Shown here in pieces: positions 202-22,396 of a stretch of 40,422 nucleotides of DNA. The stretch comes from Sphingomonas sp. (GTDB lineage: Bacteria; Pseudomonadota; Alphaproteobacteria; Sphingomonadales; Sphingomonadaceae): the NCBI GenBank assembly GCA_019744885.1, contig JAIETY010000169.1:1-40422 (forward strand), read 5' to 3'. Positions within the stretch are counted from its first letter, which is position 1. Each line of letters begins with the position of its first letter. The position numbers and the translations under genes were made by a program. Under the pieces are notes generated by a model. The model ran no database searches. It was given only the letters and a program-made list of their open reading frames with translations, and was not told the origin of the DNA.

Positions 202-1227
202 TTAGTGGCCACCGCGCTGCATCACCTGCGCCGCGAACCGCTCCATCTCTTCCGCCTGCGGGCTCATCTGGAGCAGCAGCAGGTCGAGACCGGCATCCTC
301 ATAGGCCTCGATCCGCTCACGCAATTGTTCGGGTGTGCCGACAAGATTGGGGCGCAAGCCACGGTTCGATACCGAATATTCATGGATTTTCATTTCTCGT
401 TCGAGCTGCGTGCCCGACAGCCATTGATCGAAATTATCGTAGCCGGCCGGCAGCTCGCTCACTTCGGTAATGCGCGCCAGCTCGCGCTGCGCTTCGGCTT
501 CGCTGTCGCGCACGATCGCATAAGCGGCCATGCCGTACTGCATTGGCGGCTTGCCGGTGGCTTCGCGCCGCGCGGCCATGTCGGCGATCTTGGGCGCAAT
601 ATTCTCAACCGGATCGCCGTGCATCACATAGGCGTCGCATTGATTGACGATCAGCGTCTTGGCGGCCTCGCTCTCGCCGCCGGCGTAGATGGTCGGATGC
701 TTGACCGGCTTGGGGCTACAAATCGCCTTGTCGGCGTTGTAGAATTTGCCCTGGAAGTCGAATTCCTCCTCCGACCACAGCCCCTCGACCATCGTCAGCC
801 ATTCGCTGGTGCGCGCATAGCGATCGTCGTGCTGGTCGAATTGCAGGCCATAGCGCTTGGCCTCATCGGCCCACCAGCTCGACACCACATTCAGCGCGAG
901 CCGCCCGCCCGCAATCTGGTCGATATTCGCGGCGGCCTTGGCGAACAGCGCAGGCTGGTGAAAATTGGGCCGCACCGCGACCATCAGCTCGAGCGTTTCG
1001 GTCACCGCCGCGAGCGCCGCCGCCGTCGACCAGGCATCGAGCGTCGGCGCACCGACGCCCTTGATGTCGTTCATGTTGAGCTCGGCGATCAACGACAGGT
1101 CGTAGCCGAGCGCTTCGGACCGCTGGGCGAGCGCCTTGGTATAGGCCCAGCTCGCATCCATCCCCTCGTCGGGCACATTGCGCAGCCAACCACCAAACAC
1201 GGGCATCCAGTAACCGTAACGCATCAC
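202..1227 (-). CDS. LLM-class flavin-dependent oxidoreductase (SsuD-like monooxygenase)
   Basis: A 341-aa protein of the bacterial-luciferase-like monooxygenase superfamily, closest in look to the FMNH2-dependent alkanesulfonate/sulfone monooxygenase group. Family-type segments seen are the N-terminal GYWMPVFGGWL strand, RPNFHQPALFAKAAANID near residues 85-102, NVVSSWW near 112-118 and a YAGGESEAA segment near 180-187. These enzymes use reduced flavin and O2 to oxygenate a substrate in the cytoplasm. Reduced flavin comes from a separate reductase, which is not visible here. The start ATG overlaps the stop of the ATP-grasp gene by 4 bases (ATGA), indicating co-transcription and coupling. The substrate cannot be inferred: there is no sulfonate transporter nearby, so a role in tailoring the product of the ATP-grasp enzyme is as likely as sulfur scavenging. 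Confidence 0.88.
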   Translation of the reverse strand: MMRYGYWMPVFGGWLRNVPDEGMDASWAYTKALAQRSEALGYDLSLIAELNMNDIKGVGAPTLDAWSTAAALAAVTETLELMVAVRPNFHQPALFAKAAANIDQIAGGRLALNVVSSWWADEAKRYGLQFDQHDDRYARTSEWLTMVEGLWSEEEFDFQGKFYNADKAICSPKPVKHPTIYAGGESEAAKTLIVNQCDAYVMHGDPVENIAPKIADMAARREATGKPPMQYGMAAYAIVRDSEAEAQRELARITEVSELPAGYDNFDQWLSGTQLEREMKIHEYSVSNRGLRPNLVGTPEQLRERIEAYEDAGLDLLLLQMSPQAEEMERFAAQVMQRGGH

Positions 1228-2132
1228 TTTCCTCGTTCGATTTCGGCGACCAGATAGTCGACGAGACGTTCGTGCGGGTCCCAGCCCAAGACGTCGAGCG
1301 GCTTGGCAACAAAGTTGGACAGCGCATTGATATCATAGAAGCGCGGGGTGCCGTCGCGGTCGTCGATCATCACTTCGACCCCGCCGATATCGAGCCCGGC
1401 CGCCGCTGCAATGCGTTCGGCGGCGTCGATCAGCGTCGCATCGGGGTCTACCTTCGTCATCGTGATCGGCTTGCCATCGGCGACGCAGGCATCGGCCGGG
1501 CAGAGATCGAACGCGCCACCCCCGGCGACATCAAGTGCATAGAGATAGCGCCGGTCGAGCGTTTCAATCCGGGTGATCACGCCGTCACGCGCGGGCACAT
1601 ATTCCTGCACCAGCAACACGCCGTCGATGCTCGTCGGCAGAAACTTGTCGGCGACGGCGACGGCGAGCTCGGCGGGGGTATCATAGCGCATAATCCCGGC
1701 GCCCGACCCGCCGACATTGGCCTTCACCACCAGCGGATAGCGGAGTTCGGCTGCCGCCGCGATGATGTCGACCGAACGGTGGACGACGCGCGTTGCGGGC
1801 ACCGCGAGCCCAAGGCTGGTGATGAGGGCGAGCTGTCGCGCCTTGTTCGCGTCGACCGCCAGCACATCGGCACCGTTGATCACGCGCGCGCCCTGCCCCG
1901 CCCAATGCGCGAACAGGGCGTGCGCGTAATAGATCGCGTGATCGGGCGAGCGCAGAAAGCTCGACATTGCGAGCCGACTGAACACCACGCGGGCGGGCGG
2001 TGGCGCGCCGGCGGGATCAAAGCGATGCCCCTCGATTCCGATGCGCACATAATCGACGCCCCGCGCATCAAGCGCCGCGAACAGCGACGCGAACCAGGCG
2101 GGATGTTCATAGAAAATCGCGAGATCGTGCAT
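1224..2132 (-). CDS. ATP-grasp domain protein (RimK/D-Ala-D-Ala ligase-like)
   Basis: A 302-aa ATP-grasp ligase. The ATP-binding lysine lies in PLVVKANVGGSGAG (residues about 133-146), followed by the hinge VLLVQEYVPA (about 172-181) and the Mg-binding segment RFYDINALSNF (about 264-274, with Asp267 and Asn269). ATP-grasp enzymes of this size join a carboxylate to an amine through an acyl-phosphate. The N-terminal third (HDLAIFYEHPAWFASLFAAL) looks like the pre-ATP-grasp fold of glutathione-synthetase/RimK relatives. It is first in a two-gene overlapping unit with the LLM oxidoreductase. The substrate is unknown; modification of a peptide, amino acid or cofactor are all possible. Confidence 0.85.
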   Translation of the reverse strand: MHDLAIFYEHPAWFASLFAALDARGVDYVRIGIEGHRFDPAGAPPPARVVFSRLAMSSFLRSPDHAIYYAHALFAHWAGQGARVINGADVLAVDANKARQLALITSLGLAVPATRVVHRSVDIIAAAAELRYPLVVKANVGGSGAGIMRYDTPAELAVAVADKFLPTSIDGVLLVQEYVPARDGVITRIETLDRRYLYALDVAGGGAFDLCPADACVADGKPITMTKVDPDATLIDAAERIAAAAGLDIGGVEVMIDDRDGTPRFYDINALSNFVAKPLDVLGWDPHERLVDYLVAEIERGK

Positions 2133-2262
2133 AAAATCCAGTTCAGCGGCGCCGTCGGTCAGGCGCGTTGATGATCCCCCGTCGCGCGGGATGTAGCGCT
2201 GTGTCTATGCCGTGCCATGTCGGCATGCAATCATCGCACGCGGGCGAGACTATGCCGCACGA

Positions 2263-4290
2263 TCAAGCCGTATTGGCGTCCGGCAGCGGCGCATCGATCG
2301 TGCAGACCAAGCCCTCGAGCCGGAAGTCGAGCTGGACTTCGCCTTGCAATTCAGTCGACAGCGCGCGCTCGATCATCAGCGAGCCAAAGCCACGACGGCT
2401 GGGCGCCACGACGGGCGGACCGCCCGATTCCTGCCAGCGCAGATGCAGCCGGTGATGCGCGCCGCGCTCGATCGACCAAGAGAGTGCAACCCGCCCCGAA
2501 TCGACCGACAGCGCGCCATATTTGGCCGCATTGGTGCACAGTTCATGCAGCGCCATCGCGATCGTCACCGCCGTCTTGGGCGCGAGCCGGAGCGACGGGC
2601 CGTCCATCGTGATCCGGTCAGCGCCGTCGAGATGCGGCGCGCAGGCCTCTGCCGCCACCGCCGCCAGATCGGCCGATTCCCAGCTTTCGCGCGTCAGCAG
2701 CCCATGCGCCTTGCCCAGCGCGGCCAGCCGCTGGTCGAACGCTTCGCGCGCCTCGATCGCAATGCCTTCCTGCCGAAAGGTCTGATAGGCAATGCCCTGA
2801 ACGATCGCGAGCGTGTTCTTCACGCGGTGGTTGAGTTCGTCGATCATCAACCGCAGGCGCCGCTGCGCGCGGCTGTGCTCGGTGACGTCGGTCGTGACGC
2901 CGACCACGCCGACAATCGTGCCGTCGCTGTCGCGCATCGGCGCCTTGGTCCCCTGAAAAATGCGGACCTCACCGTCGGGCGTCGTGAAATGCTCCTCGAC
3001 CCGGAGAATTTCGCCGCCGTCCATCACGGCGCGGTCATTGGTGATGATCGCGGTCGCCTCGTCCAGATCGTCGTGCCATTCGTCCTCGCGGTGGCCGATC
3101 ACCGCGTCGGCAGGCTTGCCGATCACCGCGAGCGTCGCCGAATTGGCATAGAGCATCCGGTGCGCGCGATCCTTGGCGAAGATCAGCTCGCCCGAACTTT
3201 CGCCGATCGCCCGCAACAGCCGCTCATTGTCCGCGAGCGCGCGGTGCGCACGGGCCGAAGCGCGCGCGGCGGCGGTACGTTCGGCGACATCGGCGATCAG
3301 GCTTTGCTCGGTCTCGCTCCAGCTCCGCGGCCCTGCGGCGACGACGAACATCAGACTGCGCAGCGCATTTTCGCGCCACAGCGGTACCACGACGAAGGCG
3401 CCGATTCCGGCCGCGACCAGCCCGACCCGCACCGGCGCCACGATTCGCTCTTCCTGCGCAACATTATCGACGACCACGGTATTGCCGCTGCGCAATTCAC
3501 CCGTCAGCGCTGGCCCGAAACTGATGATCCGGTGCCGCCCCGCCACCGTCCGCCCGCCGGCGCGGTGCCATTCATGCTCGATCGTCATCGAATCGGTGGC
3601 GAGATCGGCATCGATGAAGCCGACGCTATCGACACCGAGCCGCTCGCCGAGCATCGCCGAGGCCGTCGCGAGCACCGCGCCCGGATCGCCCACGTCGCGC
3701 AGGGCATCGACCAGCGATACGACAAACGCCTGCCGCTGTTCGGCCATCACCCGCGTGGTCGTTTCGGTGCAGATCACCAACACCCCGGCGATCCCACCCG
3801 GCGCGCTATCGTCGTCGATCGCGCTATAGCTATAGGTCCAATAGACATTTTCGTGGCGCCCGTGGCGCAGGATCGGGATCAGATGGTCCTGATGCCAGGT
3901 CGCGCCCTGCCCCTGCATCACGAGCGCAATCTCCGGGCCGATCACAGGCCAGATTTCGGCCCATGCCTGCTCCGCGCGAGCGCCGAGCATCGCCGGATGC
4001 TTCTCAGGGCCAAGCGACGCCCGATAGCCGTCGTTGTAAAGGCAAATGCCCTCGGCACCCCAGAAAATGAACATCGGGTGGCGCGTGCCCAGCATCAACC
4101 GCACCACCGTGCGCAGACTTTGCGGCCAGTCAGCAGGCGGGCCAAGCGGCGTCGCGGCCCAATCATGCGCGCGGATCAGCGCCCCGAGCGTGCCACCGCC
4201 GCGCAAAAAGGCCGGCGCGTCTTCGGTGCCCGCCATCGTCACGGCGTCATCGCGCGCGCTGTGCGGGTCAAAGGGGTCTTCCGCACTCAT
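2263..4290 (-). CDS. PAS-GAF-PAS HWE-family sensor histidine kinase
   Basis: A soluble sensor kinase of about 675 aa. Residues counted from the ATG at 4290: PAS-like about 35-175, GAF about 190-335, second PAS about 355-472, then an HWE kinase core about 478-675. The phospho-accepting His is in ELNHRVKN (His488), the N-box is HELCTNAAKYGALS (from 582), the family WxE motif appears as WQE (619-621), and RGFGSLMIER is the G-box. No transmembrane segment is seen, so it senses a cytoplasmic signal. HWE kinases usually feed single-domain response regulators or general-stress circuits (known for the family). No response regulator lies beside it. I prefer ATG 4290 (GGGA upstream); GTG 4314 is the longest option. 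It follows the lasso exporter by about 80 bp on the same strand, but any functional link is only inferred from position. Confidence 0.9.
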   Translation of the reverse strand: MSAEDPFDPHSARDDAVTMAGTEDAPAFLRGGGTLGALIRAHDWAATPLGPPADWPQSLRTVVRLMLGTRHPMFIFWGAEGICLYNDGYRASLGPEKHPAMLGARAEQAWAEIWPVIGPEIALVMQGQGATWHQDHLIPILRHGRHENVYWTYSYSAIDDDSAPGGIAGVLVICTETTTRVMAEQRQAFVVSLVDALRDVGDPGAVLATASAMLGERLGVDSVGFIDADLATDSMTIEHEWHRAGGRTVAGRHRIISFGPALTGELRSGNTVVVDNVAQEERIVAPVRVGLVAAGIGAFVVVPLWRENALRSLMFVVAAGPRSWSETEQSLIADVAERTAAARASARAHRALADNERLLRAIGESSGELIFAKDRAHRMLYANSATLAVIGKPADAVIGHREDEWHDDLDEATAIITNDRAVMDGGEILRVEEHFTTPDGEVRIFQGTKAPMRDSDGTIVGVVGVTTDVTEHSRAQRRLRLMIDELNHRVKNTLAIVQGIAYQTFRQEGIAIEAREAFDQRLAALGKAHGLLTRESWESADLAAVAAEACAPHLDGADRITMDGPSLRLAPKTAVTIAMALHELCTNAAKYGALSVDSGRVALSWSIERGAHHRLHLRWQESGGPPVVAPSRRGFGSLMIERALSTELQGEVQLDFRLEGLVCTIDAPLPDANTA

Positions 4291-4371
4291 CACTGTCCCG
4301 ATCATTCCCGGCACAGCGGCGTGCTGCCGCCAAACCCTAGCCTGTCACCGATGCCTTGTCATTGATCGGCA

Positions 4372-6106: not shown

Positions 6107-6640
6107 TCATTGCGGCGGGACGAACGCGCCGATTTCGGCGATACCAGGGGAGATCGGATAGCCTGTGACTTTCACGCTCGCAGCATCGAGCCACGCATGC
6201 GCGACCAACCCTCCCGCTTCGTCGCGGCCAGCGCCGTAATGGAGGACACTCGCCACGCCGCGCCGCGCCAGCATGCCGCGCGCGGCGACCGCCTGTTGGA
6301 TGCACATGGCCTTGAACGGCATCACCGACGCCGTCGCCGTGACGGCCCAGCCGATCGCGCGCGCCAGCTCGGCTGCATCGGCGGATGCCTCGGGCATCGT
6401 CAGTCGGGGGTCGCCCACCGGGATCAACGACCCCCAGCGCGCGGCCAGCTTGGGAAAGGGCACCGCGAGCAATCTGATTCGCGCCACCAGCAGCGCGAGC
6501 GCCGCTTCGGGCACCAGCCGCTGACGCGCCCAGCCGACCGACATCAGGGTGCGGGCGCGGCGCAAAGGGTGGTTTCCCAGCATCGTCGCCAACGCTAGGC
6601 GGCCAACCGCCGAGCGTCCACCGCGCGGACCGTCAGCCAT
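6107..6640 (-). CDS. Lasso-peptide leader peptidase (B2, transglutaminase-like)
   Basis: A transglutaminase-fold cysteine protease that removes the leader from a lasso precursor. The catalytic Cys is in MCIQQAVAARGML (Cys113) and the His in AHAWLD (His148), the two most conserved segments of lasso B2 proteins. The acidic third member of the triad is not obvious. I place the start at ATG 6640, which overlaps the cyclase stop by 8 bases and gives 177 aa. The frame stays open to 6757, but that would add about 39 poorly structured residues inside the cyclase gene. There is no N-terminal RRE domain, so the leader-binding function must come from the separate B1 gene at 9987-10289. This split B1/B2 layout is a known alternative to the fused McjB type. 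Confidence 0.88.
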   Translation of the reverse strand: MADGPRGGRSAVGRLALATMLGNHPLRRARTLMSVGWARQRLVPEAALALLVARIRLLAVPFPKLAARWGSLIPVGDPRLTMPEASADAAELARAIGWAVTATASVMPFKAMCIQQAVAARGMLARRGVASVLHYGAGRDEAGGLVAHAWLDAASVKVTGYPISPGIAEIGAFVPPQ

Positions 6641-8567
6641 TGCTCTGGCTCGCCTTGCGCAGGAAATGCCCCACCGAAACCCCGCGCAGCATTGCGAGTC
6701 GATAGCTTTCCGATACCGCCTCCGACCCCCAGCCGCCGCTCGGCCAGTCGCGCTCAAGCGCCATCAGCCGATCGATATCGAGCAAGCTGCTGGCGGGCGC
6801 GCAGGCAGCGATCCGCGCCAGTTCTTCGCGCATCGAGGCGCGTGCGGAATCGAACCCCAAATGCCAATCGGCGGCCTGCAAACCCTTGCGCGGCTCGTCG
6901 AGCACGGCGGCGGGCAAGCGGTCGGCGAGCGCGCGGCGCGGCAAGCTCCGGAAGCGTCCGCCCGTCACAAATTCAGCCATCGGCGCGGCCAGCATATAGT
7001 CGACCAGCCGCCGGTCGCTGGTCGGATCGCGCTGATCGACCCCCCAGCCGGCGATATAACCCGCGTAATAATTGCCCGGATCATGGCGACCGAGCACGAA
7101 CATCCGCATCGCAAAGCCGTCATGCCAGGGGCGATAGGCGATATCCATGCCGCGCGCCCGCGCGCGTCGCTCCAGCGCATCGTCGCGATATTGGGCACGA
7201 TTGATCGCGGTGTGCGCGAGCGGATCATGATCGAGCCGCCACCGCCGCTGGCGGATCGCCTGCTCGAACCCGCCCGGCAGAAACGGCAGCAACAGCCGCG
7301 ACGCCAGCCCTCGCCACCGTATCGACCCCTGCCGCACCAGTGTGCGGCTGACCCGCGCCAGTTCGATCAACCGCCCCTCGCGCAACAGCTGCGGCAGATA
7401 TTCCTCCCCCGCATAGCTGACCGACATATTGCCGACCTCGCCAGTGAGCATCACGCCGATAGATCGCCGCTTGGCCTCGCCAAGAATGCCATGGATCCAC
7501 GGCATGTTGCAGCGGTTGAGCAAAGGCATTTCGAACAGGAAGAAGTCGCGGTCGAGCATTTCGAGCGGTGACGTGCGGCCCGTGCGAATCAGGACATGCT
7601 CGATGTTCCGATAAAGCGCGGCGGTCTGCGCGGCGAGTGGCCCTTCATCGGCAAAACGCCAGCGATCCTCAACCGGCGCATGGTCTGCCTCAGGTACCGA
7701 GGTGAAGGCTGCTACCGATCCCTTGTCCGCCAGCAACCGCGCTGCCGTGGCGGCGACCGACGCGCTGTCCCATCCCGAGCTCAGATGCGCGCCCACCGTC
7801 GTCCCTGCCCCGCGCAACCGCGCAGCTACCGCTTGATCGAGATGATGCCGCAAGCCCTCGACATAATCGCGCGGTGGCGCGGCGCGATCGGGGCGCGCCG
7901 GCTGCCAATAGCGCCGTGACGCGATTGCCGATCGGGTGACCGACAGGATCGTTCCCGGCGGCACGCGCTCAATCCCCTGCCAGAAGCTCGGCGTCTCTGC
8001 AGCGGGCATCATCACCAGAAAGTCGGCGCTGGTCTGCAAATCGGGCGCATAGGGCACCTCGGCCAGCGCGTGCAGCCCCTTGGCCATCGACGCGACCGCG
8101 ATCATGCCGTCACCGCGGTGGAAATAGAGCGGGCGATTGCCGCGATAGTCACGCGCCAGCAGCAGGGTCTGGCTCGCCGCGTCCCAGCAAGCAAAGGCGA
8201 AATCGCCGATCAGCCGATCGACCGCGCGTTCACCCCAGTGCGCCAGACAATCGAGCGGCAGCGCCGCATCACAACGATTGGCGATGCTCCCCGTCGGCTG
8301 GCCGAGCGCGGCTACCAGTTCCTCGCGATTGTCGAGCCGGACATCGGCGACCAAGGTCAGTCGCGCGTCCGGGGTCTGCAACGGCTGGCGATCAAATCGA
8401 TCCTCGGGCAACGTCCGGTGGAGACACCGCCCCAAACCCACCGCGCCGTCGGCCCAGTCGGCGGTGTCGTGCGCACCATAAAGCCGCAGCGCCGCCAGCA
8501 TCCGCGCCAGATCGCGCGCAACCTCGCCTTGCCCTTCGAACCGCCAAAGTCCTGCAATCGCGCTCAC
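6633..8567 (-). CDS. Lasso-peptide macrolactam synthetase (C, asparagine-synthetase-like)
   Basis: A 644-aa asparagine-synthetase homologue expected to adenylate the ring Asp/Glu side chain and close it onto the N-terminus of the core peptide. The N-terminal glutaminase-like domain (about 1-200) begins MSAIAGLWRF, so the catalytic Cys2 of true asparagine synthetase is absent, as in lasso cyclases. The AMP/PPi-binding motif is seen as SSGWDSAS (263-270). It starts with GTG at 8567 after a GGGGTGA-like site. Its stop overlaps the B2 start by 8 bases. Missing Cys2 plus the B2, exporter and PqqD-like neighbours argue for lasso cyclase rather than an asparagine-making enzyme. Confidence 0.9.
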   Translation of the reverse strand: MSAIAGLWRFEGQGEVARDLARMLAALRLYGAHDTADWADGAVGLGRCLHRTLPEDRFDRQPLQTPDARLTLVADVRLDNREELVAALGQPTGSIANRCDAALPLDCLAHWGERAVDRLIGDFAFACWDAASQTLLLARDYRGNRPLYFHRGDGMIAVASMAKGLHALAEVPYAPDLQTSADFLVMMPAAETPSFWQGIERVPPGTILSVTRSAIASRRYWQPARPDRAAPPRDYVEGLRHHLDQAVAARLRGAGTTVGAHLSSGWDSASVAATAARLLADKGSVAAFTSVPEADHAPVEDRWRFADEGPLAAQTAALYRNIEHVLIRTGRTSPLEMLDRDFFLFEMPLLNRCNMPWIHGILGEAKRRSIGVMLTGEVGNMSVSYAGEEYLPQLLREGRLIELARVSRTLVRQGSIRWRGLASRLLLPFLPGGFEQAIRQRRWRLDHDPLAHTAINRAQYRDDALERRARARGMDIAYRPWHDGFAMRMFVLGRHDPGNYYAGYIAGWGVDQRDPTSDRRLVDYMLAAPMAEFVTGGRFRSLPRRALADRLPAAVLDEPRKGLQAADWHLGFDSARASMREELARIAACAPASSLLDIDRLMALERDWPSGGWGSEAVSESYRLAMLRGVSVGHFLRKASQSNG

Positions 8568-8677
8568 TGCTCGTCGTCACCCCGTCTGCGGTCGGCATAA
8601 ACCCGGCGCGCCGCCGTCGCACCCGCTTGGCGTGCGCGCCGCTTGCTGGCAAGAGGCCAACAACAAGGGAATATCGC

Positions 8678-9562
8678 TTGACGCAACATGTCTATACCGT
8701 CGCCGGACTGCGAGTGGTGAGCGACCTGCCGATGCCGGGCCTGCTGCCCGGGCCGTCGCTGGACGATCACCCAGGCGCCGCCGATGTAACCATTGCACGC
8801 GCGGTGCTGCCCCCGGCCGCGATGGCCAACGTCCATCACGAATTGAACTTCGAGATCGCCGATCTGATGCGCATGTCGATGCGGCATGGGACGACCATGC
8901 TCTACGATCCGCTGCCCGATGCGCTCGCCGACGATATGGCGCTCTACCTCGGCGGCACGGGCTTCGGTGCCCTGCTGCACCAGCGCGGCATGGTGCTGTT
9001 GCATGCCAGCGCCGTGCGGATCGGCGACGCAGCGGTGCTGTTCTGCGGCCCGTCGGGCGCGGGCAAGTCGACGCTTGCGGCGGCGCTGGTCGAAGCGGGT
9101 CATGATCATGTCGCCGATGATTTCTGCGCGATCAGCTTTGCCGCTGACGGCACGCCCATGGTCGCGCCCGATGGCCGCCGCCATAAGCTATGGGACAGCG
9201 CGATCGACGGGCTCGCCGCGCTCGATCGGCGCGGCGGCGCGGTAAGATCGGACATGGCAAAATATTACGTCGATCCGCGCCGCACGGTGGCAACACCCTT
9301 ACCGATCGCTGCGATCTTCGAACTCGCGGTTGGCGACGCCGTGGAAATCGCGCCGCTCGGCGGGTTAGAGCTTGTTCGCGTGATGCGCGAGCACGCCTAT
9401 CGACCGAATCTTGTCAGTTTGATGGGGCAGCATCGACCCTATTTCGAGGCTGCGACAATCATCGCCAAAAATAGCAAAGCAGCCAAGCTCATCCGCCCCC
9501 TGCAGTTTGACATGGTCGCAACAACGATCAGCACACTTGAGGGCTACCTGGATCAACAATAG
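8678..9562 (+). CDS. HprK-like lasso-peptide kinase
   Basis: A 294-aa protein with the HPr kinase/phosphorylase ATP-binding fold. LLHASAV (about 107-113) precedes Walker A GPSGAGKST (124-132), then HVADDFCAI (about 144-152), as in HprK-like proteins. The N-terminal part (about 1-95) is not the usual HprK regulatory domain. Homologues in lasso clusters of Paenibacillus, Thermobacillus and Sphingobium (PadeK, ThcoK, SyanK) phosphorylate the C-terminal Ser of the precursor. That fits the candidate precursor here, which ends in Ser. I chose TTG 8678 because AAGGGA lies about 8 bases upstream; the longer ATG 8627 lacks a clear site. It is divergent from the cyclase (110 bp between starts) and convergent with the precursor. 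Confidence 0.85.
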   Translation: MTQHVYTVAGLRVVSDLPMPGLLPGPSLDDHPGAADVTIARAVLPPAAMANVHHELNFEIADLMRMSMRHGTTMLYDPLPDALADDMALYLGGTGFGALLHQRGMVLLHASAVRIGDAAVLFCGPSGAGKSTLAAALVEAGHDHVADDFCAISFAADGTPMVAPDGRRHKLWDSAIDGLAALDRRGGAVRSDMAKYYVDPRRTVATPLPIAAIFELAVGDAVEIAPLGGLELVRVMREHAYRPNLVSLMGQHRPYFEAATIIAKNSKAAKLIRPLQFDMVATTISTLEGYLDQQ

Positions 9563-9613
9563 CCAATCAGGGACGCAGAAACTGTCGCCATCGCACCCGG
9601 GCGCGAATCGACC

Positions 9614-9754
9614 TCAGGATGTCGAAAATGCGCCGTCGGTCGTGGCCGGACGCGTGCCCACGTCGGCATCAGCGGCTGCCATTTTGACCACTTGGGGTGC
9701 CTGCCAAGGCGCGCGGCTCCCTACGATATCCGACCGCGTAGTGCCGCCTGCCAT
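9614..9754 (-). CDS. Candidate lasso-peptide precursor (A), 46 aa
   Basis: A short ORF with lasso precursor features. From ATG 9754 (GGAG 9 bases upstream) it encodes a 32-residue leader and a proposed 14-residue core, GTRPATTDGAFSTS (bases 9658-9617). The leader holds W-x-x-P-x-V (WQAPQV); with Gly as +1 these residues sit at -16, -13 and -11, close to the canonical Tyr-17/Pro-14/Leu-12 motif bound by the RRE protein. Gly1 and Asp8 would give an 8-residue macrolactam. The C-terminal Ser matches the lasso kinase next door. Against it: the usual Thr at leader -2 is Asp, and the tail is short (6 residues). Other in-frame starts are ATG 9778 and 9793. It lies alone between K and B1, on the strand opposite to both. 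No better precursor was found in the locus. Confidence 0.62.
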   Translation of the reverse strand: MAGGTTRSDIVGSRAPWQAPQVVKMAAADADVGTRPATTDGAFSTS

Positions 9755-9780
9755 AATCGGTTGCTCCGTCGGCGACATTA

Positions 9781-9834
9781 ACAAAATCCCCATGTTTGTT
9801 GCGCCGCAGTTTTTGCGGTCCCATTGGATTTTGT
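9781..9834. repeat. Inverted repeat around the precursor promoter
   Basis: A perfect 9-base inverted repeat, ACAAAATCC at 9781-9789 and GGATTTTGT at 9826-9834, separated by 36 bases. A smaller one is nested inside (CCGCA 9804-9808, TGCGG 9814-9818). The right arm overlaps the proposed -35 box of the precursor gene; the left arm abuts ATG 9778. It could be an operator or a hairpin, or chance in a locally AT-rich stretch. Confidence 0.4.
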
Positions 9835-9837
9835 CAA
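9808..9837 (-). promoter_or_regulatory. Candidate promoter for the lasso precursor
   Basis: On the minus strand a perfect TTGACA -35 hexamer (9837-9832) is followed after 18 bases by a weak -10 (AAAACT, 9813-9808). Transcription would start near 9800, leaving a leader of about 45 bases before ATG 9754. It lies in a locally AT-richer stretch. The weak -10 keeps confidence modest. Confidence 0.4.
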
Positions 9838-9986
9838 CCCGATTCGGCTCCGCGCAGGGGTAGGTAGAGTCGCGCGCGCCCTTGTTTTTGCGAGCCTTTG
9901 GGGCTCTTTCTGGCACCACTTTGCAGCGCTCGTCGGTCGCTTTTTGGGCTTCCAAGCGGGCAGCAATCGCATTATCGCCCAGCGTC

Positions 9987-10289
9987 ATGACCGCCGCTGC
10001 ACCGCCATCAATTAACGACCAGACCGTCATTGCCCGCAACAGCGGCATGATCGACGCCGAAATTGGCGGTGAGCTGGTCGGACTGCATCTGGAAAGCGGC
10101 AATTGCTATGGCTTCAATCCTACCGCGACTCGGATCTGGGCGCTGATCGAACAGCCAACCAGCTTCGGCGATCTCTGTGCCGCGCTCACCGCTGCCTTCG
10201 AGGTTGACGACGCCACCTGCCGCCACGACGTCGCGTTGCTGATCGATGAGCTGAGCCGTGAAGGCCTGATCACGCTCGACCCGGCCTGA
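9987..10289 (+). CDS. PqqD-like RiPP recognition protein (lasso B1)
   Basis: A 100-aa PqqD-family protein. It shows the family pattern: IGGELVGLHLESGNCYGFN, then TATRIWALIEQP, then a helical part ending HDVALLIDELSREGLITL. Such RRE domains bind the precursor leader and deliver it to the B2 protease and the cyclase. ATG 9987 is chosen because homology-like sequence begins soon after; the frame is open upstream to 9882 but that part looks non-coding. No strong ribosome binding site is seen. It ends exactly next to the stop of the HlyD-like gene on the other strand (10290). It is on the same strand as the kinase but 424 bp away, with the candidate precursor on the opposite strand between them. 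Confidence 0.85.
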   Translation: MTAAAPPSINDQTVIARNSGMIDAEIGGELVGLHLESGNCYGFNPTATRIWALIEQPTSFGDLCAALTAAFEVDDATCRHDVALLIDELSREGLITLDPA

Positions 10290-11585
10290 CTATTCGCGCA
10301 GCGCGGTGCGTCCCGTTTCGAGAATCGGCGACAACAGATATTCAAGAATCGTCCGCTTCTCGCCGAGCAAATCAATTTCGGCGATCATCCCCGGGCCGAT
10401 CTGGTGCATCTTGCCATCGACATCGGCGAGCTGGTTGACCTTGGTCTTGACGCGGATCGTGTAGAAGCTCTGCCCGCTTTTTTCGTCGACCAGCGCATCG
10501 GGCGAAATCGACACCACGACTCCGTCGAGCATGCCATAGGTTGCCCGGTTGTACGCCGTCAGTGACACCTTGGCTGGCTGGCCAATCGCGATCGTCGCAA
10601 TGTCCGACGGCGACACGCGTGCATCGATCAAAAGACGGTCATTGCTCGGCACGATTTCGACGAGCGGCTGGCCCGGCTGAACCGAGCTGCCCGCCGTCGT
10701 AACCAGCACGCGGTTGACCGTGCCGCTGACCGGCGCGCGAACGACCGTGCGCGCGGCGCGATTTTCGAGGGCGGGCAGCGTCTGCCCCCGCGCGCCATAT
10801 TCGGCCTGCGCCGCGACCAGCTCGGTGGCCGCTTGCGCGCGCCATTGCTGCAATGCCTCAGCACGAGCGGACCGGGCCTCGGCGATTTGCGCGCGGGTTC
10901 GCGCCAGCGTGGCGAGCGCTGACTGCGCGTCGGACCGCGCCGAATCAGCCGCTGCCTGCGCCTGGACAAGGCTCAAGCGCGGCTCGATGCCCTTTTCGAC
11001 GAGCGGGCCAATCACGGTGACTTCGTGCAGCTTTTCGTCGCGGATCAGCTCGCGCGAGCGGAGTAGCGCGGCCGCGCTCGCGGCTTCACGCTGGGCCGCA
11101 TCAAGCCGGGCATCGGCAACCGCCGTCGCATGTCCCAGATCGGCCATTCGCGCGAGATGCAGCGACCGTTCGACCGCGACCTGCTCGGCCAGCGACGGAT
11201 CAGCTACCGGCGGATAGTGCGGCTCGCTTCCCGCGACTTCCGCAGTGAGCCGCGCGATCTTGAGCTCAAGCGCGCCCAATGTCGCCTTGCCGCTGCCGAG
11301 TTCGGCGCGCATCTGGGTCCGATCGAGTTCGAGCAACGGCATCCCCTGGGTCACCGTGTCGCTCACGCGGGCGATGATGCGCTGCACGATCCCGCCTTCG
11401 GGGTTGGACACGACCTGAAGCTGCGTCGTCGGAATCACCCGACCGGTCGCGCGCACGGTGCGGTCGAGCTTGGTAAAGGCGGCCCAGATCACCGCAATCA
11501 CGAAAAAGGCCGCAATCGCCCAGAGCAGGACGCTTGAGCTTCGCCGCGTCACCGGGCGTGCGAACTCGGTCGTGATGTGGTTCAT
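10290..11585 (-). CDS. Type I secretion membrane fusion protein (HlyD family)
   Basis: A 431-aa periplasmic adaptor linking the inner-membrane ABC transporter to an outer-membrane TolC channel. A short cytoplasmic N-terminus precedes one membrane segment (about 17-38, SSSVLLWAIAAFFVIAVIW). Next come a barrel-sandwich half (VIPTTQLQVVSNPEGGIV), a long Ala/Glu/Arg-rich coiled coil (about 90-285), the second half (VRAPVSGTVNRVLV), and a C-terminal beta-barrel ending in ILEYLLSPI, typical of T1SS adaptors. Its ATG overlaps the ABC stop (TAATG), so it is the last gene of the TolC-ABC-HlyD operon. It most likely serves the two RTX proteins encoded upstream. Confidence 0.92.
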   Translation of the reverse strand: MNHITTEFARPVTRRSSSVLLWAIAAFFVIAVIWAAFTKLDRTVRATGRVIPTTQLQVVSNPEGGIVQRIIARVSDTVTQGMPLLELDRTQMRAELGSGKATLGALELKIARLTAEVAGSEPHYPPVADPSLAEQVAVERSLHLARMADLGHATAVADARLDAAQREAASAAALLRSRELIRDEKLHEVTVIGPLVEKGIEPRLSLVQAQAAADSARSDAQSALATLARTRAQIAEARSARAEALQQWRAQAATELVAAQAEYGARGQTLPALENRAARTVVRAPVSGTVNRVLVTTAGSSVQPGQPLVEIVPSNDRLLIDARVSPSDIATIAIGQPAKVSLTAYNRATYGMLDGVVVSISPDALVDEKSGQSFYTIRVKTKVNQLADVDGKMHQIGPGMIAEIDLLGEKRTILEYLLSPILETGRTALRE

Positions 11586-13309
11586 TACGCCGCCTTGTTC
11601 TGCATCGCAGCGCGCAGCACCTGATCGCGCGGGCCGTCGGCGGCGATCTTGCCGCCCTCGAAAACGATCACGCGCTGCACCAGCGCCAGCAATTGCGGCC
11701 TGTGCGTGATGATGATGACGGTGCGGTCGGCGATTTCGGCCTGGAGCCGCTGGATCAGCCCCATTTCGGTCTGATTGTCCATCGCGCTGGTCGGCTCGTC
11801 GAGCACCAGCAGCCGAGGCTTGCCCGCCAGTGCGCGGGCGAGCGCAATCGACTGGCGCTGGCCGCCCGACAGACCCTCGCCGCGATCGGCAAGCCGCAGA
11901 TCATAGCCGTTGGCGATCCGCCCAACGAACTCATGCGTGCCCGACAGCGTTGCGGCGCGCAGCATTTCGTCATCGTCGATGCCGACGCGACCGAGCGTGA
12001 TATTCTCGCGCAACGAGCCCGTGAACAGCACGCTTTCCTGCAATCCAACGCCAACCGACTGGCGAAAGCTTGGGTCGAACTGGCGGATGTCGGTGCCGTC
12101 GATCATTACCACGCCTTCTTCGGGCGGGTAGAGGCCGAGGATCAGCCGTGCGAGCGTCGACTTGCCCGATCCGACCCGGCCAAGCAGCGCGACGCGCTCA
12201 CCCGCCGCGATCTTCAGCGAGACGTCGCGCAACACCGGCTCGGGCGCGCCGGGATAGCGAAAGCTAACGCCGCGCAGCTCGATCGCCCCGGTGAGCTTGG
12301 TCATCTTCAGCCCGTCGCCCCGCGGCCCTTCGACCGGCTGCTCCATCAGCGCGGTCACTTGGCGATAGGCGGTACGCGTCTGTGCGAGGCGTGAGGCGAG
12401 ATTGGCGATCTGGCCGAGCGGCGAAATCGCGCGGCTCGACAGGATCGAGCACGCCGTCAGCGCGCCGATCGTGATGCCGCCATTGCCCGACAGCACTGCT
12501 CCCACGATCACTGTCCCGGTATAGCCGATTGTCCCTGCCGATCCGGCAAAGGTCGTCGCAATCGCGCCGATCAACCGCTGGCGCAGCGCGGTTGCGGATT
12601 GGTTGCGCACCGCGCGGCGCCAGCGATCGGTCAGCAGCGGCCCCGCCCCCGCTGCCTTGACCGTCTCGATCGCGCCAATCGTCTCGACGAGCACCGATTG
12701 CTTCGCATGCCCCTCGCGCATCGTGTCGGCGGCGAGCCGGTCCATCGCCGGCTGGGTGAACAGCCCGACCAACACAACCAGCGGCACCAATATCCCCGGC
12801 ACCAGCGCCACCCAGCCACCGATCAGTGCAATCAGCGCCAAGGTCAGGAAAATGAACGGCACATCAACAATCGCGACCATCGTCACCGAGGCGAAGAAAT
12901 CGCGCAACACTTCGAGTTCGCGCATCAGCCCGGTCAGCGCCCCGGTCGACCCTTTGCGCAATTCAAGCCGCATCTGCACGATCCGTTCGAACACGGTGTC
13001 GCCAACGTCATGATCGATGTCGGCGCCCGCAACATCGACGAAATAGGACCGCAGCAGCTTGAGCGCGAAGTCGAATATCACGACGATCGCCAGACCGATC
13101 GACAACCCGACCAGCGACGACATCGCGTTATGCGGAATCACGCGATCATAGACGACCATCGAAAAGATCGACGTCATGAACCCGAACAGGTTGACGAGCA
13201 CCGCCGCCACCGCAACTTTGACGTACACCGCCGAATTGCGGCGCATCGGCGCGACCAGCCATTCGGCGAAGCGCGGCCGCGGCGTTTCGATCAGCGTATC
13301 GCCCGTCAC
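11585..13309 (-). CDS. Type I secretion ABC transporter (LapB/HlyB-like, no C39 domain)
   Basis: A fused permease-ATPase of 574 aa from the preferred GTG start at 13309. That GTG overlaps the TolC stop (GTGA) and has GGAG about 11 bases upstream; an ATG at 13348 would overlap TolC by 43 bases. The membrane domain has the T1SS hallmark FSMVVYDRVIPHNA near the N-terminus and spans about 20-305. The ATPase has Walker A GRVGSGKST (about 376-384), signature LSGGQRQ (about 480-486), and Walker B PRLLVLDEPTSAMD. The C39-like peptidase domain of HlyB/LapB is absent, so substrates are not leader-cleaved. It sits between a broken TolC gene and an intact HlyD gene. Confidence 0.92.
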   Translation of the reverse strand: MTGDTLIETPRPRFAEWLVAPMRRNSAVYVKVAVAAVLVNLFGFMTSIFSMVVYDRVIPHNAMSSLVGLSIGLAIVVIFDFALKLLRSYFVDVAGADIDHDVGDTVFERIVQMRLELRKGSTGALTGLMRELEVLRDFFASVTMVAIVDVPFIFLTLALIALIGGWVALVPGILVPLVVLVGLFTQPAMDRLAADTMREGHAKQSVLVETIGAIETVKAAGAGPLLTDRWRRAVRNQSATALRQRLIGAIATTFAGSAGTIGYTGTVIVGAVLSGNGGITIGALTACSILSSRAISPLGQIANLASRLAQTRTAYRQVTALMEQPVEGPRGDGLKMTKLTGAIELRGVSFRYPGAPEPVLRDVSLKIAAGERVALLGRVGSGKSTLARLILGLYPPEEGVVMIDGTDIRQFDPSFRQSVGVGLQESVLFTGSLRENITLGRVGIDDDEMLRAATLSGTHEFVGRIANGYDLRLADRGEGLSGGQRQSIALARALAGKPRLLVLDEPTSAMDNQTEMGLIQRLQAEIADRTVIIITHRPQLLALVQRVIVFEGGKIAADGPRDQVLRAAMQNKAA

Positions 13310-14734
13310 TTCACGCGGTCTCCGGCTGGCACGTCGATCTGCAGACAATTCAGCAGACCACCGGTGCGCGCGAGCAATACATAGCGGTTCGTGTCCAGTT
13401 CGGACAGGCCCTGCAAATAGCCGACAGCAGCCTGGAACAATTCCTCTTCGCCGTTCAGCACCTCGAACACCGATCCGCGCGCCACGCGGAATCGCTCCGC
13501 GACGCCGTCGCGCGAAATGCGCGCTGCGACATACGCCGCTTCATATGCCGCAAGCTGTTCCTGCAGCGCGTTGACGTCGGACCAGGCGATCGCAGCATCA
13601 CGCCCGGCATCGCCGCGGATCTGGTTGGCACGCGCATCCGCCTGCCGCGCCCGAGCCCCCGCTTCGCGAATGCGCGCGTCGATACCGCCGAACAGCCGCA
13701 CGCGCAGATTGACGCGACCACGAACGTCATAGTCGTAGGGCGTTTCGAAAATGCCGTAGCGACCGGCGTCGATGCCTGCCGTCAGCAGCGGCCGCGCCTC
13801 GCGAGCCACCGCCCTGGCATCGCGCGCGGCTGCCTGCGCGGAAGCAGCGGCACTTAGCACGGGCGGGGCGTGCGCAGCCGCCGCAATCGCTTCGTCCTGC
13901 CCACCCTGGAACCCGCAAGCGCGCGGCACACGCTGGAGCCCGGGCGGGGGCGTGCGTCCCGTCAGCGCAACGAAGCGCGCCTCGGCGGCGTGCATCCGGC
14001 GATCATAATCTGAAAGCCGCGCCTTGTTGCGCGCAATCGCGCTGTCGATGCGCGCAAGATCGACCGGCGCCGCGACTCCGGCATCGATCCGCTGCTGGAC
14101 GGCGATGCGCGCGTCGACCTCGCTCGCCAGAAAGCCGCGCGCCAGCCCGCCGAGCGCGCGATAGGCGGCAACCTCATACCAGGCGACGACAACGTCGAGC
14201 GCGATTTGCGACGCACTGCTGTCGATATCGGCGATGCTCGCACTCACCCGCGCGCGCCGCAGCTTGCCGCTCACCGCCCGCACCAAAGTCGAACAACACC
14301 TGGTTGAGGCTGAGCGTCCCGTCGGTACGCCGCGACGGGCGTGTCCGTTCGAGCACATTGAGCGGATCGTTCGAAAAATCGCGCGAGATCACTCGAAAGC
14401 TCTGGATATTGATGTCGACCGTGGGTCGCCCTGCCTCGCGCGCGCCATCAAGCTGCGCCTCGGCTGCTGCGCTCGCGGCCCGCGCCTCGGCCAACGTCGG
14501 ATGCTGACGGACCGCATCGTTGACGACGGTGATGAAGGGCGCGCGCGACATCGCCGAATCGGCGAGCGACAGCACCGGGTCCTGCGCGCGTGAGTCTTCC
14601 AGTGGTTCGGCCACGCGCGTCGGCAACGCGATCGGCGGTATCGCCTGTTGGCCGACCGCCGTCGTAGGCAACAGGGCAATGCCGAACGCAAGCGCTCGCC
14701 ACCGCCTTCGCCCATCGCTGCTACGCATCACCAT
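13306..14734 (-). pseudogene. TolC-family outer membrane channel, frameshifted
   Basis: The two halves of a T1SS TolC-family protein lie in different frames. The N-terminal half (ATG 14734, AAGG upstream, signal peptide ending near TAVGQQ) runs to TLSLNQVLFDFGA; the C-terminal half resumes VSGKLRRARVSASIADID and runs to the stop at 13306. At the junction (14274-14281) the sequence GCGG occurs twice in tandem. Removing one copy restores a continuous frame of about 474 residues, a normal TolC length. Both halves contain the expected long helical segments, so the protein was recently functional. It may be a true mutation, an assembly error or a reversible slippage. The intact tolC at 38383-39915 could supply the missing channel. 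Confidence 0.85.
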
Positions 14735-15841: not shown

Positions 15842-18800
15842 TCAGAGTGCGAACTGCGCCTCGAGCGGCTGAGCTCCCTGCGCCAGGATCTGGAAATCGG
15901 CGATCCCGTCGCCATTGACGTCGCCTTCGATCAGCCAGTCAGCGCCCGAGGCAATCACGCGAAGCTGACCCGCGACGTTGGTGAAGGCCCCCGCGCCGAT
16001 GAAGGCGAAGGCGGTGTCGCCATTGCCCGCATTGCCATCGGCATCGATCTGCGTGAGCTCGATCCGGTCGCCCGCCGCGAAATCAGTGATCCGGTCGCCG
16101 CTGCCCACCTGCGTTTCATTCACCGCAGTATAGCGGAACAGGTCATTGCCCAAGCCGCCGGTCAGCACATCCGCGCCGAGACCGCCGAAGAAGGTATCGT
16201 TGCCCGCGCCGCCAATCAGCGTATCGGCGACGCTGCCAGCAATGAAGCTGTAATTGCCGTCGAGTTCTGCGCTGGCATCAAGCTGAAGCGAAGTCACCAC
16301 GGGGAGCGCGAAGACGGTAAAATTCTGCCCCGCACCGACCAGCGAGTCAGCAAACTGAATATTGTAATTGGCAAAATCGCCCGCCACGCCCGCGAGCAGC
16401 GCCAGCACTTCGACATTGCTGAACTGCGTGCTGGTCAGCGTGCCGGTAAAGTTCCCGTCGAACGCGACCTGATCATTGGTCCCTGCCCCGCCATTGACGG
16501 TGTCGGTCGCGGGGTTGAAGCGACCGGGTCCGAAGTAGAAGCCGTCGTCGCCCGCGCCACCCCTGAAAGTGTCGATGCCGAGCCCGCCATAGATCCGGAC
16601 CGAGCCATCGGTCTCCGCCGAAGCGTCGACTGTAAAATTGTCGCCCGCGCCCAAATTAGTGCCAAAGAAGGTCAGGATCCGGCCAGCGCCGATATTGTCG
16701 TCGACCGTGGTGATCGAATAGCTGAACCCCGCCAGCACCGCGATGACTTCGACATTGCTGATCGTCAATGCGCCCAGGGTCAGTGCGTTGGCGCCGCTGT
16801 AATTGCCCTGCAGGCCGATCTGATCGTTGGCCCCGCCGCCGCCATCAACGCGGTCGGTCGCGGTGAACGCGGCCCCGAAGAAGAAGCCGTCGTTGCCCGC
16901 GCCGCCGTTCACGGTGTCATCGCCGCCTTGGCTGAAGTTGAACAGGTCGTTGCCCGGTGTGCCGACATAATTGTCGTTGCCGCCCGAGCCGGCAAAGCCG
17001 GTGTTGCCACCCGTATTGGCGACGAGCGACACGGCAGTGCCGCCACTGCCGTTATTCGCCAGGCTGAACGCGAACGCACCCAACCCGGTGCCGACGTTGA
17101 TCGTCGCTTGTGCCGTATCGCCAAAATCGATCAGCTTAAGCAGGCCCGTTGTCGCATTATAGCTCGCGATGACCGTGCCGGCGGCGATGCCCGTGAAGTC
17201 GAGCACATCGCCATCCGCGCCAAAGCCTGTGATCGCATTGCCTAGCGTCATTGCAACATCGGTGCCAAGCGCCGCATTGGCGATGCCCAGCGTCTGCGCC
17301 CCCGCGCCAAAGGTGATCGCCCCCGTCACTGCCACGTTCAAATTGAGCCGTCCGCCATTCAGCGCGACGCCGCCCGAATAGGCCTGTGCATCGGTGATCG
17401 TCCAGGTGCCGCTGGTCACCGTCAGATTTTCGAAGTTGATCACATTGGTGAGCGACCCGGTCGTGATGCCTGAATTTGCGCCGGTCTGGGCATTGCCCGC
17501 GACGCGATTGTCAAGCGCAAGCACCAGCGTGTCGGTGCCCGCACCACCGTCGATCCGCCCGTTGACACTAGAGCCGGTCCGCAGCGTCAGCTGGTCGTTC
17601 CCGCCTTCCAAATTGATCGCGCGACCGCTGTTGCCAACGATCGTTCCATAATTATCGATCGTGTCGACCCCCTCGCCGGTCTGGATCGCGGCGCCGTCGC
17701 CACGGATGAAGCGCGCCGCGCCCGCATTCGCGGCGGTATAGGTTACCCCGTCGAGCGTCCCGACGGCGCCCGGATCGGCGACATTGTCCTGCCGCAGCAC
17801 CGTGCCCGTCGGGACCGTCCCCGTGCCGGTGATCGTGCCGTAATTGGTGATCGCGTCATTATCGATCGCCGTCCCGGTCTTATTCTCCAGCCGGATCGCA
17901 AAGCCGGTGCCGCCGCTGATCGTGCCGCCGGCATAATTCAGGATCGTTGTCGCGGTGCTGCCCGAACGGCTGTTGTTCGCGTTCGAGTCATTGTTGACGA
18001 CGATGCCGAAGTTAAACCCTTCGATCGTCCCCTGATTGGTGATCGCCCCGCCACCGATCGAGATCGCTTCGGAGTTGTTCGCGCGACCGCCGCTATCGAA
18101 GCCGCCTGCGCCGGTCGAGCGGATGATGCCGCCGACATTATTGGTGATCGTCGCGCCGCCATCGATATCGACACCATCTCCATCGCCGTCGATGGTGACA
18201 TAGCCCGCACGATCGAAAGCAGGTGCATAATCGCCCCGGATCAGCCCGCTGTTGATCACCGTCACCGTGTTCGCAGCAGCGCCCGTCGTGTCGGCGCCGA
18301 TGCCCGAGCCATTGCGGCCGATGATCTGGCCACCGGCATTATTGGTGAAGATCAGGTTGGTCGCATCAGTGACGCCGACATCAAGGCCGTGCTGCGCGCC
18401 GGTGATCGTGCCGAAATTATTGACCGCGACTGCCGTTGCCGCACCCTGATTGACGCGCACGCCGCGCGACACGTCATAGGTTTGCGTGACAGAGGTGTTC
18501 GGATTGCCATTGGCGCCGTTGAACACGTTGTTGGTCGCCGCGTCGTTGACCGGTCCGTTGCCGTTGATCGTCCCGTAATTGTTCAACGTCTGATGCGCGC
18601 CAAGGCGGATTGCGTCGCCATTGTCGGCGCGGATCAGCGCGGTGGTGTTGCCGACGCTGCCGTTGTTGATCGTGCCGCCGGTGGTGAAGTCGGTCGACGG
18701 CGCGCCGGTCGCGCCGAGCGCGGCGTTATAGGTGATGGCAAAACCGGTGCCTGGATTGGTGCCCCCGACGCTCGGCGTGAAAGTCGATGCTCGCGCGATG

Positions 18801-22270: not shown

Positions 22271-22396
22271 ATCAGTCCCCATGAGCCGATTCAGAGCCCA
22301 ACCGGTCCGAATCTATCGCAAATTTTAATCATTGTTAGGTAGCTGCCATGACAGAAATATTGCAAAATCTGCAGAGCACTACAGCGCACCGATTCC

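What the first reader, a model, noticed from the sequence alone, without database searches (positions are those of the whole stretch)
9614..9754. Unannotated-size lasso precursor with Gly1/Asp8 ring and C-terminal Ser
The sequence shows a 46-aa minus-strand ORF with a WxxPxV leader motif at the expected distance from a core GTRPATTDGAFSTS, in the middle of a locus with B1, B2, C, D and a lasso kinase. The core would form an 8-residue ring and a 6-residue tail ending in Ser. The usual Thr at leader position -2 is replaced by Asp, which would be an unusual recognition sequence. I know of no described lasso peptide with this core, but could not search.
Basis: partly seen in the sequence, partly recalled or inferred. 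Interest (0 to 1): 0.85.

Follow-up and report, generated by a model that had tools for sequence, protein, structure and literature searches.

The report
Kinase-tailored lasso peptide with shifted boundary
A small conserved gene of a likely sphingomonad bacterium sits among a full set of lasso-peptide genes and is predicted to make a knotted peptide whose last serine is likely phosphorylated; comparison with relatives suggests that the enzyme would cut one residue earlier than first thought, after an unusual recognition sequence.

Summary
The ORF is real. Its C-terminal part is conserved as GTRxxxxDGxFx[TV]S in the window and 10 homologues; window, L033, L034 and L144 share the same B1-A-K-C-B2-D arrangement; it evolves like protein (dN/dS 0.25 against L033, 0.10 over the last 32 codons). 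The start is probably 24 nt upstream: 54 aa, 9614-9778(-). The locus has an HprK-like kinase with intact His-Lys-Asp-Asp, B1, B2, C and D, so a C-terminally (poly)phosphorylated lasso peptide, known from paeninodin and SyanK, is the likely product.

In the window's 23-row cyclase clade the residue one earlier is Ala, Thr or Ser (19/3/1), as at a usual -2 site. B1 carries Cys where Thr(-2) systems mostly carry Tyr. A new variant of a known kind; all chemistry is predicted.

The parts
9614..9778 (-). lasso precursor A, probably 54 aa MSPTEQPIMAGGTTRSDIVGSRAPWQAPQVVKMAAADADVGTRPATTDGAFSTS (46-aa version 9614-9754)
   Evidence: 54-aa length and W25 also in L033, L034, L144, P0002-P0004; dN/dS 0.25 against L033 over 54 codons, 0.10 over the last 32
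   Evidence: Register comparison over 20 clade rows and 44 Thr/Ser(-2) rows; boundary inferred, not measured
9689..9706 (-). WQAPQV, WxxPxV motif that B1 proteins bind
   Evidence: W, P and a V/I/L at these places in the 11 close family sequences
9787..9791 (-). GGGGA, likely ribosome-binding site, 8 nt before the 54-aa start
   Evidence: GGGGATTTTG before the start also in L033 and L144; AGGGG in L034
9832..9837 (-). TTGACA, promoter -35-like element upstream of A
   Evidence: GGTTGACAAA in 4 of 4 loci including the window; the consensus scan found no full sigma-70 site
8678..9562 (+). lasso kinase K (HprK-like); TTG start inferred, ORF 8627-9562
   Evidence: His-Lys-Asp-Asp motif intact
9987..10289 (+). 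B1, discrete RRE (PqqD family), motif GNCYGFN with Cys at the Tyr33(FusE)-equivalent position
6633..8567 (-). C, lasso cyclase (asparagine-synthase type)
6107..6640 (-). B2, leader peptidase (transglutaminase-like); start inferred, ORF 6107-6757
   Evidence: NF033537 64.8 bits, PF13471
4372..6096 (-). D, ABC exporter
   Evidence: PF00005, PF00664

Best explanation
Window 9614-9778(-) holds a conserved, probably 54-residue precursor that would be bound by B1 through WxxPxV, likely phosphorylated on its C-terminal serine by the neighbouring kinase, likely cut by B2 after Asp39 (Ala at -2), and closed by C into a predicted Val1-Asp9 lasso ring with tail GAFSTS. D would export the product. In this clade the B1 residue thought to contact Thr(-2), usually Tyr, is mostly Cys, and the leader mostly has Ala at that site instead of Thr. 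Shown by sequence: the ORF, its conservation, the gene set and order, the kinase motif, the B1 Cys. Inferred: every reaction, the cut site, the ring, the phosphorylated residue and export.
For: Conserved frame and purifying selection. Homologues L033, L034, L144, P0002-P0004 and P0006-P0009. Gene order with A inverted between K and B1 in the window, L033, L034 and L144. HprK-like kinase with the HKDD motif, needed for C-terminal Ser phosphorylation in paeninodin-type systems (PMC9266682, passages read). Register: the residue 13 after W is A19/T3/S1 in the 23-row cyclase clade (rows, tree); rings of 8 (12), 9 (6), 7 (1), 10 (1) in 20 rows, against 8 (19), 9 (20), 10 (3), 7 (1), 11 (1) in 44 Thr/Ser(-2)/Tyr rows. 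The nearest sister, L142, has Ser and L208/L209 have Thr at that site. Glu, the commonest next residue in the clade (15 of 20), is a frequent -1 residue (9 of 44).
Against: Val/Leu/Ile as residue 1 falls on 9 of 20 rows in this register but on 2 of 44 in the comparison set, and PMC12670498 names Gly, Cys, Ser and Ala as observed residues 1 (and adds Asn). Sister loci L182-L185 have Thr one residue later; most of their precursors have the window's distance to the ring Asp. L223 and L237 would need 10-residue rings. Seven-residue rings are known (PMC13352647 passage). BsfK phosphorylates Ser3, not the C terminus, and accepts Thr there (PMC10368454); in the favoured register position 3 is Thr, so the site is not certain. 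No expression data.
Confidence: 0.64

Rival explanations
1. One reading: B2 would cut after Val40 of the 54-aa precursor, with Asp at -2, Gly1-Asp8 ring and tail GAFSTS; everything else as above.
For: Gly stands at that site in all 11 close family sequences and is residue 1 in 12 of 20 clade rows; Gly-Thr-x5-Asp-Gly also fits the experimentally studied BsfA core (sequence); sister loci L182-L185 have Thr at that -2 slot, as has L069, whose B1 has Cys.
Against: The -2 residue would be E15/K2/D1/N1/Q1, a set with no precedent in the passages I read; 13 of 20 rings would have 7 residues against 1 of 44 in the comparison set; Thr or Ser stands one residue earlier in L142, L208, L209 and L237.
Confidence: 0.26
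2. Val(-2) register like the published Ile/Val(-2) Sphingomonadales precursors: cut after Gly41, Thr1-Asp7 ring.
For: W would be at the usual -17 and Val/Leu/Ile at -2; Ile/Val(-2) is reported for Sphingomonadales (PMC10368454).
Against: 10 of 20 clade rows would have 6-residue rings only; L086's precursor would start with Pro; B1 has Cys, while 13 of 13 Val/Ile(-2) loci have Phe.
Confidence: 0.03
3. A linear phosphorylated RiPP (LPP-like) and not a lasso: the precursor would be phosphorylated and cut but not cyclised.
For: LPPs share a YxxPx leader motif, RRE and kinase (PMC13381572, passages).
Against: LPP clusters are described as lacking a macrolactam cyclase and using a signal-peptidase-like enzyme; this locus has C and B2, kept in L033, L034 and L144.
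Confidence: 0.03
4. The ORF is not translated and another peptide is the substrate.
For: No transcript data; G000 is 83.6% complete.
Against: Codon-position bias and dN/dS; conserved ribosome-binding site; only one convincing copy in the genome.
Confidence: 0.02

Closest known systems
SyanA/SyanK of Sphingobium yanoikuyae (polyphosphorylated lasso precursor)
   Same: Sphingomonad lasso kinase acting on a precursor with C-terminal Ser (PMC9266682 passages)
   Different: A proteobacterial kinase cluster is given the order A-B1-B2-C-K-D (PMC5067487 passage); here A is inverted between K and B1. The SyanA sequence was not seen.
Paeninodin (PadeA/PadeK, Paenibacillus)
   Same: Kinase with HKDD motif and precursor with C-terminal Ser
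   Different: Firmicute order C-A-K-B1-B2-D; the cores were not compared
BsfA/BsfK/BsfB1/BsfB2 of Bradymonas sediminis (Ile at -2; PMC10368454, abstract and five sections read)
   Same: Kinase-type locus with a non-Thr residue at -2
   Different: Ile(-2) and phosphorylation of Ser3; here Ala(-2) is favoured and the C-terminal Ser is the likely site; B1 has Cys, BsfB1 keeps the Tyr
Ile/Val/Ala(-2) precursors predicted by Kretsch et al. 2023 (known only from mentions in PMC10368454 and PMC10885120)
   Same: Ala(-2) had been predicted before
   Different: Whether they include this clade or its B1 Cys could not be checked; the paper is not held

Membership tests
Lasso peptide biosynthetic locus | Precursor plus B1/B2 leader peptidase and asparagine-synthase-type cyclase C | tested here: met
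   C and B1 match the lasso models NF033535/NF033536 below their curated cutoffs, B2 above its cutoff
Lasso peptide biosynthetic locus | [Y/W]xxPx[L/V/I..] in the leader | tested here: met
   WQAPQV; kept in the close homologues
Lasso peptide biosynthetic locus | Thr at leader -2 (usual, not defining: Ile/Val exceptions are published, PMC10368454) | tested here: not met
   No Thr at any of the three possible -2 sites (Ala, Asp or Val)
Lasso peptide biosynthetic locus | Asp/Glu at ring position 7-9 | tested here: met
   Asp48 of the 54-aa form is position 9 (favoured), 8 or 7; present in 11 of 11 close family sequences
Lasso peptide biosynthetic locus | Threaded, macrolactam-closed product | not testable with these tools
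   Needs mass spectrometry or NMR
Kinase-tailored (paeninodin/SyanK-type) lasso subgroup | Kinase with His-Lys-Asp-Asp | tested here: met
   PF07475 at 32.1 bits, just below the gathering score of 33.3
Kinase-tailored (paeninodin/SyanK-type) lasso subgroup | C-terminal Ser in the precursor | tested here: met
   Ser in window, L033, L034, L144, P0002-P0004, P0006-P0009; the wider scan required Ser and so cannot test it
Kinase-tailored (paeninodin/SyanK-type) lasso subgroup | Phosphate on the C-terminal Ser | not testable with these tools
   No experiment
Ile/Val(-2) lasso class | Ile or Val at -2 | tested here: inconclusive
   Only if the cut is after Gly41, which gives 6-residue rings only in 10 of 20 clade rows
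Linear polyphosphorylated peptides (LPP) | No cyclase; signal-peptidase-like leader peptidase | tested here: not met
   C and B2 present

The most novel reading that the evidence does not exclude
A third leader-recognition class of lasso peptides: B1 has swapped the Tyr that reads Thr(-2) for Cys, the leader has swapped Thr for Ala, and the cyclase has come to accept bulky residues such as Val, Leu and Ile as residue 1. With Tyr/Thr and Phe/Val as the other two classes, one B1 residue would report the -2 residue and thus locate the cut site in unannotated precursors.
Probability: 0.42. Interest if true: 0.6.

Novelty: new variant of a known kind. Interest (0 to 1): 0.46.

Why it matters
A Thr at -2 is used to place the cut site of lasso precursors (as in PMC12670498), which is no help where it is missing. 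The 23-row clade found here has mostly Ala there, mostly a changed residue in B1 and, if the favoured boundary is right, uncommon first ring residues. That makes the proposed B1-Tyr/Thr(-2) contact testable by swapping one residue on each side, and adds a set of likely phosphorylated sphingomonad lasso peptides that my searches did not find described.

Tried and rejected
It lost ground when the genus-wide cyclase search brought loci with Thr (L208, L209) or Ser (L142) one residue earlier and ring acids mostly one residue closer. The Val(-2) register was dropped because of 6-residue rings and a Pro1. The second genome hit (contig C53, E 0.086) lies antisense inside a 1000-aa ORF. No relatives of the precursor on plasmids; the 9 plasmid records with a kinase match were all under 60% identical. 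The promoter/terminator scan of 8500-10400 found nothing. Precursors were not found for L178, L187 and L214-L217 although B1 has Cys. The B1/-2 association is strong by count (44 Thr/Ser with Tyr, 29 neither, 4 exceptions of 77 rows) but rests on 5 independent pairs, 3 in agreement, none opposed, 2 without difference, p 0.25, and my choice of -2 is part of it; I do not claim it as proven.

Rows dropped: 150 locus scans (149 loci, L142 twice), many without a lasso C or B1, gave the 80 rows; precursors and their -2 residues were picked by eye. In one search, 11 of 75 loci with B1 and C had no assigned precursor; of the 36 loci, 17 were used and 19 not (no precursor, no B1, or ambiguous). L155 and L225 come from overlapping stretches with the same C. 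The automatic B1 reading was wrong for L083 (H; Phe; corrected) and unusable for L223. One search ended in a script error after printing the tree; one search did the counts.

Full report
OBSERVATION. It ends 51 nt from the end of an HprK-like kinase gene on the other strand and lies upstream, on its own strand, of C, B2 and D; B1 diverges from it on the other side. Profile support is clear for B2 and for the PqqD domain of B1, and partial for C, for B1 as a lasso B1 and for the kinase, whose scores are below curated cutoffs although lasso or HprK models are the best ones.

THE GENE IS REAL. A scan with the kinase found two related records, L033 (Sphingomonas sp. MAG, kinase 86%) and L034 (Sphingomonadaceae MAG, 64%); both encode the precursor at the same place and strand. 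A later genus search (57 of 295 genomes, the window's own included, with a kinase match at E <= 1e-15) added L144 (precursor). The gene order, with A inverted between K and B1, is the same in the window, L033, L034 and L144. Protein searches added P0002 and P0003, P0004, P0006-P0009 (P0006 and P0007 have the same core). In these 11 sequences the C terminus reads GTR[PA]x3DG[AQS]F[SA][TV]S. Between window and L033 the differences fall 8/4/18 on codon positions (46 codons); dN/dS is 0.25 over 54 codons and 0.10 over the last 32.

START. An in-frame ATG 24 nt upstream gives 54 aa, the length of L033, L034, L144, P0002, P0003 and P0004, with W at residue 25 in all (the P0006-P0009 entries are 52 or 69 aa). 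GGGGATTTTG stands before it in window, L033 and L144 (AGGGG in L034), and GGTTGACAAA further upstream in 4 of 4. The shorter start has GGAG in the window but GGAT in L033. I take 9614-9778.

KINASE. The kinase keeps His, the P-loop Lys and the Asp-Asp pair. PMC9266682 (passages read) reports that such kinases act on the linear precursor's C-terminal Ser, with up to four phosphates for ThcoK and SyanK. PMC10368454 (abstract and five sections read, with passages) reports a kinase acting on Ser3 instead, and accepting Thr there in a variant. The window's core ends in Ser and has no Ser at position 3 in any register; position 3 is Thr in the favoured one. The C-terminal site is therefore more likely but not certain. 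This is inference.

WHERE IS THE CUT? Counting W as 1, the candidates are: register A, after 16 (Asp15 at -2, Gly17 first, ring to Asp24 = 8); register B, after 17 (Val16 at -2, Thr first, 7); register C, after 15 (Ala14 at -2, Val16 first, 9). Loci were gathered from the kinase search of 199 family genomes (178 with a match at E <= 0.001, many of them weak), the genus kinase search, and C searches at E <= 1e-70 of 397 family (12 with a match) and 295 genus genomes (34 with a match). Precursors were picked by eye from pattern hits and tabulated for 80 loci. In 44 loci with Thr or Ser at -2 and Tyr in B1, rings (first acid from position 7 on) are 8 (19), 9 (20), 10 (3), 7 (1), 11 (1). In 20 clade rows (17 with B1 Cys, L069 left out, plus L142, L212, L223 without a usable B1), register A gives 7 (13), 8 (6), 9 (1); register B gives 6 only (10), 7 (8), 8 (2); register C gives 8 (12), 9 (6), 7 (1), 10 (1). 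In the cyclase tree (quick method, SH-aLRT) the window, L033, L034 and L144 (100) join L142 (97) and lie in a 23-row clade (96), which adds L232, L233 (B1 Phe) and L237 (B1 Tyr) to the 20. In the rows position 14 of this clade is Ala in 19, Thr in 3 (L208, L209, L237) and Ser in 1 (L142), the residues that the Tyr-type loci also show at -2. Position 15 is Glu in 15 of the 20 rows, and Glu is also common at -1 in the comparison set (9 of 44).

AGAINST THIS. Residue 1 would be Val, Leu or Ile in 9 of 20 clade rows, against 2 of 44. PMC12670498 (passages read) names Gly, Cys, Ser and Ala as observed and adds Asn. Sister loci L182-L185 have Thr at position 15, most with the ring Asp at 24, and L069 with B1 Cys has Thr15. 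The distance from W to Thr/Ser differs between loci (position 15 in 23, 14 in 16, 16 in 5 of 44), so spacing alone decides nothing. L223 and L237 fit register C only with 10-residue rings. Seven-residue rings are structurally known (PMC13352647 passage), and the published Val/Ile(-2) reading would itself give 7-residue rings in L064, L070, L077 and L083 (read by hand's sequences). My weights: C 0.70, A 0.27, B 0.03.

B1. PMC10368454 states that Tyr33 of FusE is suspected to contact Thr(-2) and to form part of the S2 pocket. The aligned residue is Tyr in 44 of 47 Thr/Ser(-2) rows, Phe in 13 of 13 Val/Ile(-2) loci and Cys in 17 of the 20 rows of the 23-row clade whose B1 could be read (Phe in 2, Tyr in 1). 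Of 77 rows, 44 have Thr/Ser with Tyr, 29 have neither, 3 have Thr with Cys (L069, L208, L209) and 1 has Ala with Tyr (L154). Relatedness leaves 5 independent pairs: 3 agree, 0 oppose, 2 show no difference (p 0.25), so the association is suggestive only. In the tree Val/Ile with Phe occurs in two separate groups (L060/L074 and a 10-row group). Kretsch et al. 2023 used covariance data to explain the invariant Thr (as reported in PMC10885120, passage); whether they saw this pattern I could not check.

NOVELTY. The 14-mer core was in no held paper. Listings for lasso kinases, penultimate residues, RRE and peptidase terms showed no paper on this clade by title or start of abstract (15 of 19 listed, 8 of 8, 4 of 4, 10 of 23, 15 of 56). 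Phosphorylated sphingomonad lasso peptides and non-Thr(-2) leaders are known, and Ala(-2) has been predicted. What I did not find described is the clade, the inverted A gene, the B1 Cys and the shifted boundary.

Noticed in passing
window 10290-14358(-): A type I secretion operon (HlyD, LssB-type ABC, TolC) abuts B1. A matching HlyD/LssB pair lies within the fetched stretch in 5 of 22 clade loci (L033, L034, L144, L180, L220) and in 0 of 76 other loci; whether it serves the lasso peptide is unknown.
   Followed up: partly
window 15842-22282(-) and 22397-27448(-): Two very large ORFs (2146 and 1683 aa) follow the secretion operon and may be its cargo; not analysed.
   Followed up: no
window 202-4314(-): Luciferase-like monooxygenase, RimK-like ATP-grasp protein and HWE histidine kinase beside D; ORFs of matching length (341, 302, 680 aa) lie at the same places beside D in L033, not compared by sequence.
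   Followed up: no
L180:3122-3322 and 7351-7551 (+): Two precursor ORFs of equal length, identical over the residues printed, about 4.2 kb apart in one locus.
   Followed up: no
L076:741-1661(-): Three precursors in a row with Ile at the likely -2 site and different cores in one kinase-type locus.
   Followed up: no
B1 proteins of L060/L074 and of the 10-row group with L057, L064, L067, L070, L072, L073, L075, L076, L077, L083: Phe in place of the Thr(-2)-contacting Tyr goes with Val/Ile(-2) in two separate parts of the cyclase tree.
   Followed up: partly
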